Shown here piece by piece: positions 9,678 through 20,693 of a stretch of DNA of 64,000 bases (position 1 is the stretch's first letter; every line of letters begins with the position of its first letter). The DNA lies in NCBI GenBank assembly GCA_947500555.1, contig CANMSE010000001.1, positions 992,001 through 1,056,000 of the forward strand, in the 5' to 3' direction. The notes under the pieces were generated by a model that did no database searches, was not told where the DNA came from, and saw only the letters and a program-made list of their open reading frames with translations. This DNA is from an uncultured Fulvivirga sp. (lineage in GTDB: Bacteria; Bacteroidota; Bacteroidia; Cytophagales; Cyclobacteriaceae). The translations under genes and the position numbers were made by a program.

Positions 9678-9716
9678 TTACACATCTTCCATTGATTGTT
9701 ACATGAATCTCACATT
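9678..9716 (-). promoter_or_regulatory. Bipartite motif copy a
   Basis: TTACACATCTTCCATTGATTG-TTACATGAATCTCACATT; half-sites 21 bp apart; upstream of 9619. Confidence 0.65.
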
Positions 9717-9822
9717 AAAAGAACAGATAGTTCTTCAACACCTGTCCCTATCCATCACCAGAAGCATGTGGTTACACCATCTATTAAATGCTGTATTTGG
9801 TTAAAGTAAGATTCTTACTGAT

Positions 9823-10173
9823 TCAAACGGTAACCTCTTCATATCCACTCTTGATTACCGTTGAGATCATTTTGAACCTCACATTGGCCTTAATGATATT
9901 TTGGGAATGGGCCGGAATGATAATCGACTGGCCTATATCAAGTAGATTGGATTCACCATCGATCACGATCTCTGCCTTACCATCGATCACCTGGATAAAA
10001 GTGTCAAAAGGAGAAGTTTTTTCAGTTAAAGCTTCTCCTGTATCAAAGGATGACACTGTCACATTTCCAGTGGTTTTTTTAATGATCGTTTTGATGACCA
10101 CTGAATGGGGTACATATTCAATGATCTCTACTATTATGAAGGTTTTCCCCTTTTCTTGTTCTAAATTTTCCAC
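9823..10173 (-). CDS. Cupin-domain protein
   Basis: SPFDTFIQVIDGKAEIVIDGESNLLDIGQSIIIPAHSQNIIKA cupin pattern. Confidence 0.75.
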   Translation of the reverse strand: MENLEQEKGKTFIIVEIIEYVPHSVVIKTIIKKTTGNVTVSSFDTGEALTEKTSPFDTFIQVIDGKAEIVIDGESNLLDIGQSIIIPAHSQNIIKANVRFKMISTVIKSGYEEVTV

Positions 10174-10191
10174 TTTATTTATGGCCTACTT

Positions 10192-10308
10192 CTAATCCCG
10201 ACTTTTTTTCTCTTTTTTCTTTGCTGCTTTTGCTGCACGTTTTTCTTTCAATGTTTTGGTAGGTGCCGTTTTGCCTGATTTGGCTTTACCATCTTTTTCC
10301 TTTGACAT
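10192..10308 (-). CDS. 38-aa Lys-rich basic protein (absent from ORF track)
   Basis: Reverse-strand ATG-TAG ORF MSKEKDGKAKSGKTAPTKTLKEKRAAKAAKKKEKKSRD, 18 nt upstream of the cupin gene. Confidence 0.5.
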   Translation of the reverse strand: MSKEKDGKAKSGKTAPTKTLKEKRAAKAAKKKEKKSRD

Positions 10309-10379
10309 GTTTTTTTGTTTAGTAAACTGAATATATTACTTTATTAATTTAATGTATTCTGTATGTCTTGAGAGAGTAC

Positions 10380-11909
10380 CTACTCACCCAAATTTGTAGC
10401 CGGCAAACGCATTAATAGTTCTGGCAACTCTGGCTTAATGACTACGTCAATATGACGATTCAATTTTCTGCCGGCAGAAGTTTCGTTATTGGCAATGGGT
10501 TTGCTTTCCCCGAATCCTGATGTGCTAGATCTTTCCTTATCTATTGTGGTATTGGCATTTAGATAAGTCAGTACAGCGTCAGCACGCTCTTTTGACAATT
10601 TTAGGTTAGCGTCATCACCTCCCTGCGAGTCTGTATGGCCTTCGATGGAAATAGAAGCATTTGTGAACAGATTCATAGCTTCTTGCACTTTAGTCAATAG
10701 GGCATAGTCTTCCTGTTTGATTTGAGATTTGCCTACATCAAAATTGACACCTATCATCCTGATTATGACATCGTTTTTTTGACGAAACACCAGGGCTTCT
10801 TCCTGATCGAACAGTTGCTGCACCTTCTCAAACTTAGAGTTTACTTCTGCCATCCTGTCAATTCTGCTTTGCAAAGCCTGCTGTCTTTTTTGCCCCTTTA
10901 GGGCTTCATCAGATAGTTTTCCTTCCATAGTCTGGATAATTTTCTGCTGCTCACCTAGCAAGGCTTTGAGATTTCTATTCGTGGCTTTTTCGTTATAAAT
11001 GGAAGATTCAAGATTTGCCATACGGAGCTGATCATGGGCAATTCTTTGTGTGATCTTTGAAACTGGCATATCCACGCCTGCGTTAAATTTTAAGCTCATA
11101 TCAAGTGCTTCACCTATTTTTTCAAGGGTATTGTAATTCATAAGTAGATAATCTTCTGTTTCAAAACCCCTTTCATCCAGCGATTTTTCTTCTTTTGCGA
11201 TATGCATAGCAAGGAGCGCTTTATACTCAGCCTCTTTGGCCAGGTGTCTGGCATCATCAGTATCATACCTGTTTTCCAACAGTTCTTTTTCAGCTCCTTT
11301 TACCAGGCCTTTTGCTTCTGCTATCGTCTTAGGTGCAACTTTGTCAACTTTGTTGTCATCAGCTTTTTGTAAAAGCTTTTTTGCATTGGTCAGATAGTTG
11401 GCTTTTATAGATTCTAACTCTGCTTTTCTATACAAAGCCGTAGCATCATTTGCTTTTTCTTTGGCATCATCAGCATCACCTTTCTCCAGTTGTTCTGCGG
11501 CCTCCTTCATTTCCGCTTCTGCATCTACCCACATCTCTTTCACAAATTGTTGAGCTTCCGCATTTATAGCATCTTTTCTGGCAGACAATACACTGGAAAA
11601 CATTACTGCACTCACTTTAGTATTTTCAGTTGCTTCCTGGAATTTTTCAGTTGCTTCAGCGATTTTTTCCCGAATCCCAGAGAGCTCCGCTCCTGCCTCA
11701 TATTCTTTTTGTGCAGTATTATATTCATCCAAGGCTTCTTTAAAAGTGCGAGGAGAGAGCACATCCGCCTGAGCGGTTTTTGCCGTTACTAAGGACTTAT
11801 CCACTTCGTCAAATAAAGATGCTCGAATTCCTTGTCCGTAAAGACTGAGCCCTTGGAATGTTAATATTACAAGGACTATTCCTATCAATTTATTTTGTTT
11901 GATTTTCAT
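10380..11909 (-). CDS. OmpA-family outer membrane protein with DUF4398-like N-terminal region
   Basis: Signal peptide, long Ala/Glu/Lys-rich helices, C-terminal OmpA (ISIEGHTDSQGGDDANLKLSKERADAVLTYL). Confidence 0.8.
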   Translation of the reverse strand: MKIKQNKLIGIVLVILTFQGLSLYGQGIRASLFDEVDKSLVTAKTAQADVLSPRTFKEALDEYNTAQKEYEAGAELSGIREKIAEATEKFQEATENTKVSAVMFSSVLSARKDAINAEAQQFVKEMWVDAEAEMKEAAEQLEKGDADDAKEKANDATALYRKAELESIKANYLTNAKKLLQKADDNKVDKVAPKTIAEAKGLVKGAEKELLENRYDTDDARHLAKEAEYKALLAMHIAKEEKSLDERGFETEDYLLMNYNTLEKIGEALDMSLKFNAGVDMPVSKITQRIAHDQLRMANLESSIYNEKATNRNLKALLGEQQKIIQTMEGKLSDEALKGQKRQQALQSRIDRMAEVNSKFEKVQQLFDQEEALVFRQKNDVIIRMIGVNFDVGKSQIKQEDYALLTKVQEAMNLFTNASISIEGHTDSQGGDDANLKLSKERADAVLTYLNANTTIDKERSSTSGFGESKPIANNETSAGRKLNRHIDVVIKPELPELLMRLPATNLGE

Positions 11910-19311: not shown

Positions 19312-19506
19312 TCTTATCGGTAGATTTATGATGCTAACTCAGGAATTTGACTTTAATCCTATTAAAGTTACGTCTTATTTGACAGAAGGGTCTTAAGGAT
19401 TAATTGGTGTCAGGAAGAAAACACTTGCTTATCCTAAGTCTTGTGCCCTTACAACTTTATATGAAACTTGGAGCAGTGGATGATTTTCACTGTTATGAAA
19501 TAATCT

Positions 19507-20250
19507 TCAGCTTTTAGCCCTTTTCTTATTTCTCACATAGATCAACTTGTGTCTACTCTTAGCACTTTCCCTTTGCTCAATTTCAAATTCACCAATGGAC
19601 TTAATTAATAGGGTTAGCTTGTCAAAACCGTAATTTCTGGAATCAAAATTTGGCTGTTTTTTTTGCAAGAGACTTCCAACATCGCCAAGAAAGGCCCAGC
19701 CTTCCTCATCCGACAAGTCTCTGATTGAAGATGCAATCAGCAGTATTTCACGCTTGGTTACCTTATCTACATCACTCGTTACTCGCTTTACATCCTCTAC
19801 TTTATCCTCATTTTGATTTTTTAATATTTCGATGTAAATAAACTTGTCACAGGCAACAATAAAAGGATTTGGCGTTTTCTTTTCTCCAATTCCTATCACG
19901 ACCATACCCGCTTCTCTCAATCTCGTGGCTAGTTTTGTGAAGTCACTATCACTGGATACGAGACAAAATCCATTTACTTTATCGCTATAGAGGATGTCCA
20001 TTGCGTCAATGATCATGGCGGAATCTGTTGCATTCTTACCTGTGGTATATCCGTACTGCTGTATGGGTGTAATTGCATTTTCCAGCAAAAGGTTTTTCCA
20101 TTTGTTCAACCCTGGCCTTGTCCAATCTCCATATATCCTTTTTACAGTAGGGTTGCCATACTTGGCAATCTCTTCCATCATTTCCTTTACATTGGCTGAT
20201 GGTATATTATCACCATCGATAAGTACGGCCAGGTTTATATTTTTATTCAA
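19507..20250 (-). CDS. NYN-domain (LabA-like) protein with OST-HTH/LOTUS domain
   Basis: LIDGDNIPSANV, GFCLVSSDSDFTKLATRLREAGMVVIGIG; C-terminal GWAFLGDVGSLLQKKQPNFDSRNYGFDKLTLLIK. Confidence 0.85.
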   Translation of the reverse strand: MNKNINLAVLIDGDNIPSANVKEMMEEIAKYGNPTVKRIYGDWTRPGLNKWKNLLLENAITPIQQYGYTTGKNATDSAMIIDAMDILYSDKVNGFCLVSSDSDFTKLATRLREAGMVVIGIGEKKTPNPFIVACDKFIYIEILKNQNEDKVEDVKRVTSDVDKVTKREILLIASSIRDLSDEEGWAFLGDVGSLLQKKQPNFDSRNYGFDKLTLLIKSIGEFEIEQRESAKSRHKLIYVRNKKRAKS

Positions 20251-20440
20251 TAGTTTGTGCTTTAATTATACTTTTCAGTTTGATCAAATAAATCATATCA
20301 CTTAAAATTTAAGAATATGTGGTATGATTAAAGTGATCTACTGAAAGGCCAACTGGAAGTTAGCGCATTGCAACGTCAAAAGTACGGATATCAAATGTTA
20401 GTTGATGTCATTCTTTTAAGGTAGAAAAATGTTTGCTTCA

Positions 20441-20605
20441 CTAAAAGTGTTCATCTATTACAAAGCCAACGAAAACTAAAACCAAGGCTAGAATGATCAA
20501 TGCCATAATAATTATTCCATATAACTCGCCCCAAAAAAGAAAATAACCTATAATCCATACCAAGAGTATAATTACGATGAGGGCATTTAAAATTATCTTT
20601 AACAA
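20441..20605 (-). CDS. 54-aa hydrophobic membrane protein (absent from ORF track; TTG start)
   Basis: Reverse-strand reading MLKIILNALIVIILLVWIIGYFLFWGELYGIIIMALIILALVLVFVGFVIDEHF; motif copy g lies 50 nt upstream. Confidence 0.5.
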   Translation of the reverse strand: MLKIILNALIVIILLVWIIGYFLFWGELYGIIIMALIILALVLVFVGFVIDEHF

Positions 20606-20654
20606 ACAAGTATGGTTTCATGTATAAAGATGTGGTCATTCGGCAAGCAATCTC

Positions 20655-20693
20655 TTACACAATGAGAAGTAAGCATTACATATATCTCACTTT
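20655..20693 (-). promoter_or_regulatory. Bipartite motif copy g
   Basis: TTACACAATGAGAAGTAAGCA-TTACATATATCTCACTTT; upstream of 20605. Confidence 0.6.

What the first reader, a model, noticed from the sequence alone, without database searches (positions are those of the whole stretch)
9678..20693. Seven copies of a bipartite motif with exact 21-bp periodicity define a candidate regulon
TTACA at 9678, 11961, 12590, 14262, 17300 (as TTATA), 18509 and 20655 is followed exactly 21 bp later by TTACA at 9699, 11982, 12611, 14283, 17321, 18530 and 20676. The second half extends to consensus TTACATnTATCACATGTT. Each pair lies in the upstream region of a leftward gene or operon: small protein/CsbD, OmpA-DUF4398, coiled-coil lipoprotein, CsbD, DUF1611-racemase-dipeptidase, SPFH protein, 54-aa membrane protein. 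By eye I did not find it before the antiporter, AraC, NYN or desaturase genes, or elsewhere in the window. The two-helical-turn direct repeat suggests a regulator bound to one DNA face.
Basis: seen in the sequence. Interest (0 to 1): 0.82.

Follow-up and report, generated by a model that had tools for sequence, protein, structure and literature searches.

The report
AraC-controlled stress regulon of Bacteroidota
Seven neighbouring genes or operons carry the same DNA switch in front of their promoters, and that switch sits beside the same small AraC-type regulator gene across the phylum Bacteroidota, which points to a widespread, apparently undescribed cell-envelope/general-stress control circuit.

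Summary
All seven pairs lie at the stated coordinates. A matrix trained only on sites outside the window's own family scores them 31.6-46.8; the next best place in the window scores -3.7. In the whole 4.37-Mb genome they are the only good hits (E<=1.8e-6; next 0.077).

In gene direction the motif is AAnnTGTGATATATGTAA-N16-TGTAA. A Bacteroidota sigma-A -7 box (nAnYTTTG) follows at fixed distance, so the repeats lie at about -73 to -35, where AraC/XylS activators bind.

The likely regulator is inside the cluster: a 188-aa AraC-type protein (18745-19311, minus). Of 80 named ortholog loci from several classes, 75 carry the site, mostly just 3' of the regulator gene; in 32 sites the motif contains the regulator's own stop codon. 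Across 399 phylum genomes 34 have both site and ortholog, 3 ortholog only, 22 site only, 340 neither.

Targets are CsbD, coiled-coil lipoprotein, SPFH, OmpA, cupin, YtxH, BON, PRC and Usp proteins: envelope/general stress genes. DNA binding, activation and the signal are inferred. The mechanism is of a known kind; the regulon seems undescribed in the papers I could search.

The parts
9678..9716 (-). operator 1, upstream of a 60-aa protein gene, then CsbD-like, then perhaps desaturase
   Evidence: 31.6 bits; E 1.8e-6; -7 box 9648-9655 is weak (GATCTTAA)
11961..11999 (-). operator 2, upstream of OmpA-DUF4398 gene (then cupin)
   Evidence: 40.8 bits; E 1.2e-7; -7 box 11931-11938 CAACTTTG
12590..12628 (-). 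operator 3, upstream of coiled-coil lipoprotein gene
   Evidence: 31.6 bits; E 6.4e-7; -7 box 12560-12567 CAACTTTA
14262..14300 (-). operator 4, upstream of CsbD-like gene and antiporter
   Evidence: 46.8 bits; E 4.6e-10; -7 box 14232-14239 CACCTTTA
17300..17338 (-). operator 5, upstream of DUF1611-racemase-M15 peptidase operon
   Evidence: 36.6 bits; E 1.5e-7; -7 box 17270-17277 TATTTTTA
18509..18547 (-). operator 6, upstream of SPFH gene and 89-aa membrane protein
   Evidence: 46.6 bits; E 6.7e-9; -7 box 18479-18486 CAATTTTG
20655..20693 (-). operator 7, upstream of 54-aa membrane protein, possibly reading on into NYN and AraC
   Evidence: 42.0 bits; E 6.8e-9; -7 box 20625-20632 CATCTTTA
18745..19311 (-). 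candidate regulator: 188-aa AraC-type protein, HMA-like N-terminal domain, linker helix, HTH_18
   Evidence: PF12833; fold model pLDDT 88.7; Foldseek hits MarA/AraC DNA-binding domains, N-domain like CopZ; orthologs co-locate with the motif
9437..9619 (-). target: 60-aa protein of unknown function, recurrent behind the site
   Evidence: cluster 5 (7 regions); (9 sites)
9165..9392 (-). target: CsbD-like
   Evidence: NCBIfam PRK10428 below cut-off; clusters with relatives that hit PF05532
10380..11909 (-). target: OmpA-DUF4398 protein (start corrected from 11933)
   Evidence: PF00691, PF14346; recurs behind the site in other loci
9823..10173 (-). probable target: small cupin, second in operon 2
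   Evidence: cupins of this family directly behind the site in 12 other loci
12110..12547 (-). target: coiled-coil lipoprotein, sll1863-like stress family below cut-off
   Evidence: NF052504 E 3.8e-7; 6 sites
13961..14191 (-). target: CsbD-like
   Evidence: CsbD-like is the commonest product behind the site, 33 of 249
12670..13863 (-). probable target in operon 4: Na+/H+ exchanger
   Evidence: PF00999; position after CsbD
14333..17153 (-). target operon: DUF1611 (16077-17153), alanine racemase-like (15019-16077), M15/VanY peptidase (14333-15016)
   Evidence: Pfam; DUF1611 also behind sites in other genomes
17346..18460 (-). target: SPFH/band 7 protein (17612-18460, start corrected from 18481) and 89-aa membrane protein (17346-17615)
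   Evidence: PF01145; SPFH behind the site in 9 loci
20441..20605 (-). target: 54-aa membrane protein
   Evidence: predicted 5' leader 15 nt

Best explanation
The seven repeats are operators of one transcription activator, the AraC-type protein encoded at 18745-19311. Two protomers bind side by side on one DNA face, 21 bp (two turns) apart. The upstream protomer uses both of its helix-turn-helix units (boxes TGTGAT and ATGTAA, about 9 bp apart). The downstream protomer makes its main contact at TGTAA beside the -33 region and recruits sigma-A RNA polymerase to a promoter with a -7 box but a poor -33 box. The regulon is an envelope/general-stress set conserved across Bacteroidota, usually clustered around the regulator gene. 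Shown here: motif, spacing, promoter position, conservation, co-location and co-occurrence with the AraC ortholog, predicted fold of the regulator. Inferred: binding, activation rather than repression, dimer arrangement, stress role, and that the HMA-like N-terminal domain with its invariant Cys15 is the sensor. The signal is unknown.
For: (1) Regions picked by motif alone carry the AraC ortholog in 14 of 20 cases, against roughly 0.5% expected for a random 20-kb stretch. (2) Orthologs picked by protein alone: 28 of 30 family loci have a site within about 1.5 kb, and 75 of 80 named loci from several classes have a site. (3) In those 80 loci the matrix finds 161 sites; reversed or column-permuted matrices find 0, and changing the spacing by 1-4 bp leaves 0-8. 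(4) In 32 sites the TGA of the motif is the stop codon of the AraC gene. (5) Co-occurrence over 399 phylum genomes: 34 both, 3 ortholog only, 22 site only, 340 neither, Fisher p 6e-31, uncorrected for phylogeny. (6) Several distant paralogs carry a variant of the same promoter layout just 3' of their own gene. (7) A -7 box not used in the first search appears at a fixed distance; with the -12 to -5 placement of PMC9723704 the sites fall at about -73 to -35, like the AraC-type CphR repeats at -35 to -69 (PMC6205950). (8) 248 of 249 sites lie outside long ORFs.
Against: No binding or expression data. Some genomes have good sites but no close ortholog: G110 and G115 (8 sites each; only 35-36% identical relatives), G076, G290, G382, and G091 (46-47% relative only). 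G089 has only a broken remnant of the AraC gene beside the site. The first box of the downstream protomer is not conserved, so a full second AraC site is not seen. In the window the AraC gene has no site directly upstream.
Confidence: 0.87

Rival explanations
1. The motif is the -35/-10 pair of an alternative (ECF) sigma factor, TGTAAC and TGTAA 16 bp apart, not an activator site.
For: Spacing of 16 bp and an AAC-containing upstream element resemble ECF promoters (general knowledge); the motif is directional and upstream of genes.
Against: A sigma-A type -7 box (nAnYTTTG) follows at a fixed distance in 55 family sites and in 161 sites of other loci, so transcription should start about 35 bp after the second TGTAA. 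Predicted ECF promoters of Flavobacterium psychrophilum carry a CGT -10 box (PMC9723704), absent here. The information extends over TGTGATATATGTAA, longer than a -35 element.
Confidence: 0.03
2. The motif is bound by another regulator (a response regulator, or the TPR-GerE protein at 20993-22771), and the AraC gene is only a linked member of the regulon.
For: An AraC ortholog is itself behind a site in 7 of 249 cases; histidine kinases and response regulators occur in some clusters; some genomes have sites without a close ortholog.
Against: The TPR-GerE gene is not shared by three or more motif regions while AraC is in 15 of 21. Most AraC genes lie upstream of, not behind, the site. AraC paralogs carry a variant of the same layout beside them. 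Position and 21-bp direct repeat fit AraC/XylS binding.
Confidence: 0.06
3. The AraC protein binds the operator but represses, and stress relieves repression.
For: Nothing measured here separates the two.
Against: The sites end at about -35, upstream of and not over the -7 box, and the -33 box is poor; this is the activator position for AraC/XylS proteins (established knowledge; PMC6205950).
Confidence: 0.04

Closest known systems
AraC/XylS-family activators with tandem direct-repeat operators (AraC at I1-I2, XylS at Pm, CphR)
   Same: AraC-type two-HTH DNA-binding domain; direct repeat about two turns apart; footprint ending beside the -35 region (-35 to -69 in CphR, PMC6205950; here about -73 to -35)
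   Different: HMA-like ferredoxin-fold N-terminal domain; only one box of the promoter-proximal half is conserved; several to a dozen target promoters, mostly clustered around the regulator gene; operator overlapping the regulator's stop codon in 32 sites
General-stress gene sets run by sigma-S or sigma-B in other phyla (CsbD/YjbJ, YtxH, Usp), recalled from general knowledge
   Same: Overlapping protein families behind the sites
   Different: Here an AraC-type activator with sigma-A type promoters, not an alternative sigma factor
Predicted ECF sigma regulon SM6 of Flavobacterium psychrophilum (PMC9723704)
   Same: Also includes band 7/SPFH proteins
   Different: SM6 has a CGT -10 box; here a TTTG -7 box with upstream direct repeats

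Membership tests
AraC/XylS family of regulators | C-terminal DNA-binding domain with two HTH motifs, about 100 residues | tested here: met
   PF12833 E 2.7e-16; predicted helical domain, Foldseek hits AraT, MarA, GadX, Rob, AraC
AraC/XylS class of activator operator | Tandem direct repeats about 21 bp apart next to the -35 region | tested here: met
   21-bp spacing nearly exclusive; position from the -7 box
AraC/XylS class of activator operator | The protein binds that operator and activates transcription | not testable with these tools
   only co-location and co-occurrence
AraC-type sugar regulators | Cupin ligand-binding N-terminal domain | tested here: not met
   N-terminal beta-alpha-beta-beta-alpha-beta fold, CopZ-like
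HMA metal-binding domain | CxxC metal motif | tested here: not met
   SxxC (one ortholog NxxC) with invariant Cys15 in 27 orthologs; a paralog in L208 has CSRC
ECF sigma promoter | CGT-type -10 box and no sigma-A -7 box | tested here: not met
   nAnYTTTG at fixed distance
Bacteroidota sigma-A promoter | -7 box TAnnTTTG | tested here: met
   A, TT(T) and G conserved, leading T not conserved; box defined in PMC9723704

The most novel reading that the evidence does not exclude
This AraC protein is a core general-stress regulator of the phylum Bacteroidota, doing for CsbD, YtxH, BON, Usp and envelope genes what sigma-S or sigma-B does elsewhere, and it senses its signal through a degenerate HMA-like domain with an invariant cysteine.
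Probability: 0.35. Interest if true: 0.85.

Novelty: new member of a known kind. Interest (0 to 1): 0.68.

Why it matters
Bacteroidota lack the classical general-stress sigma factors sigma-S and sigma-B (general knowledge), and how they switch on CsbD-type and envelope-stress genes is largely open. A precise operator, its promoter position and a named candidate regulator, present in many cultured genera (Algoriphagus, Echinicola, Aquimarina, Chryseobacterium, Dyadobacter, Pontibacter, Empedobacter), make that question testable with one deletion mutant and one footprint. The matrix also lets the regulon be read directly from genomes of the phylum.

Tried and rejected
ECF sigma promoter: rejected because of the sigma-A -7 box. 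TPR-GerE protein at 20993-22771 as regulator: not shared by other motif regions. Bare TTACA pair as evidence: only about two-fold over shuffles with one mismatch, so a full matrix was used. Ten literature searches (one more was rejected for its search term) found no description of this regulator or operator; the library holds open-licence papers only, so absence there is weak evidence. NCBIfam has no specific model for the regulator and public names are generic. The other AraC-like protein near G110's sites (L195:15786-16685) is a different subfamily.

Full report
Check of the observation. The seven pairs are at the stated coordinates and exactly 21 bp apart. The bare pair is weak evidence: with one mismatch, 17 matches against 7.6 expected. 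The extended motif is not weak. Read in gene direction it is AACATGTGATAnATGTAA-N16-TGTAA. In the window's own genome (4.37 Mb, 35 contigs) a degenerate pattern puts the seven sites at the top (0-1 mismatch; one other 1-mismatch hit; total hits at up to 2 mismatches equal the reversed control). A 70-position sequence model gives exactly seven hits at E<=1.8e-6 and then nothing better than 0.077. Because that model used the window's sites in training, I also trained a matrix on 152 sites from outside the family: the seven score 31.6-46.8, the next place in the window -3.7, and 200 Markov copies of the window reach 11.1 at most.

Conservation. In 100 genomes of the family the pattern with at most one mismatch is found in 44, often in clusters (up to 12 in one genome). 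Fifty-five such sites give a logo AA-[CT]-C-TGTGATATATGTAA-N16-TGTAA-cACTTT, followed by nAnYTTTG at +56 to +63 counted from the G of GTGAT. The last element was not in the search pattern. It is the -7 box of Bacteroidota sigma-A promoters, placed at -12 to -5 by start mapping in Flavobacterium psychrophilum (PMC9723704). This puts the start of transcription near +68, the two TGTAA boxes at about -60 to -56 and -39 to -35, and the TGTGAT box near -69. Predicted 5' leaders in the window are 14-36 nt for five promoters, 8 or 17 nt for the lipoprotein (two possible ATGs) and 112 nt for DUF1611.

Finding the regulator. In regions chosen by motif alone, the most widely shared gene family is the AraC-type protein that the window encodes at 18745-19311 (15 of 21 regions including the window; CsbD-like in 12). 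A whole-genome protein search in the same 100 genomes shows a gap between orthologs (>=239 bits, 33 genomes) and paralogs (<=197 bits). Twenty-eight of 30 ortholog loci contain a matrix site; about half of those loci were not used in training. In G029, G037 and G077 most sites lie within about 31 kb of an ortholog, with a few elsewhere, so the regulon can extend beyond the cluster.

Other classes. A scan of named genomes with the AraC alignment returned 80 loci from Aquimarina, Algoriphagus, Echinicola, Chryseobacterium, Empedobacter, Dyadobacter, Pontibacter, Roseivirga, Bacteroidales and others. The matrix from the first family finds 161 sites there; reversed and column-permuted matrices find none; a spacing changed by 1 to 4 bp leaves 0-8. 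Seventy-five of 80 loci have a site, and most have one on the regulator's strand just behind its gene. In 32 sites over all loci the motif's TGA is the regulator's stop codon...GAA AAC CTG TGA TATATGTAA, encoding ...E-N-L-stop. Of 249 distinct sites, 248 lie outside ORFs of >=150 aa although such ORFs cover 67% of these loci.

Co-occurrence. In 399 genomes across the phylum, sites at E<=1e-3 occur in 56 and an ortholog at >=225 bits in 37; both in 34. The Fisher value (6e-31) ignores shared ancestry. Exceptions: G110 and G115 have eight sites each and only distant relatives of the protein (35-36% identity); those relatives carry a variant layout beside them. G089 has a broken AraC remnant beside its site. 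G091 and G181 have paralogs only; G076 and G290 lack a relative and G382 has a 46% one.

The protein. AlphaFold gives pLDDT 88.7: a beta-alpha-beta-beta-alpha-beta domain (residues 3-64), a linker helix (67-85) and a helical AraC domain. Foldseek matches MarA, GadX, AraT and AraC for the DNA-binding domain and, weakly (E 0.03), CopZ metallochaperones for the first domain. The HMA CxxC is reduced to SxxC, with Cys15 and Arg14 invariant in 27 orthologs; a paralog in L208 keeps CSRC.

Targets. Behind 249 sites the commonest products are CsbD-like (33), a small lysine-rich protein (23), Ig-like/ice-binding lipoproteins (19), cupin (12), SPFH (9), a 60-aa protein (9), a 104-aa protein (9), outer-membrane barrels (8), AraC itself (7), the coiled-coil lipoprotein and OmpA types (6 or fewer each), then DUF5670, YtxH, BON, PRC-barrel and Usp. 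This is an envelope/general-stress set; that label rests on family names, not on expression data.

Mechanism. AraC-type domains touch two successive major grooves (established knowledge). TGTGAT and ATGTAA, about 9 bp apart, fit one protomer; TGTAA 21 bp further fits the second protomer beside the -33 region, with its other contact not sequence-conserved. This is the arrangement of the AraC-type activator CphR (two 15-bp repeats at -35 to -69, PMC6205950) and, from general knowledge, of XylS and of AraC at I1-I2. I judge activation by this protein 87% likely. What it senses is not shown.

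Noticed in passing
L109:10550-10619, L112, L114, L115 and other loci, directly 3' of the AraC gene: In 32 sites the operator contains the regulator's own TGA stop codon, so the last codons of the gene and the operator share bases.
   Followed up: yes
window 18548-18750: The window's AraC gene ends LEDL-TAA without an operator there; the nearest operator is about 200 bp further on. It may be a relic of the overlapping arrangement.
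   Followed up: no
L109 and 21 other loci, behind the operator: A lysine-rich protein of about 40 aa (MAKGKDQKEKSGKKTAAKSLKEKRAAKADKRKEKN...) is the second commonest product behind the operator; function unknown.
   Followed up: partly
L049:10774-15521: Three successive related lipoprotein genes, each behind an operator; the one tested carries Ig-like and Ice_binding (PF11999) domains.
   Followed up: partly
L067:2857-3191: Broken remnant of the AraC gene beside an operator in G089, with no intact ortholog found in that incomplete genome.
   Followed up: partly
L208:9396-10592: Two AraC paralogs in tandem in G091, one with a complete HMA CxxC motif, with a variant operator between them.
   Followed up: partly
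window 14333-17153: DUF1611, alanine racemase-like and M15/VanY peptidase genes form one operon behind an operator; possibly D-amino-acid or cell-wall peptide metabolism.
   Followed up: no
window 20993-22771: TPR protein with GerE-like C-terminus, weakly similar to BT3442/SusR-type families, divergent from operator 7.
   Followed up: partly
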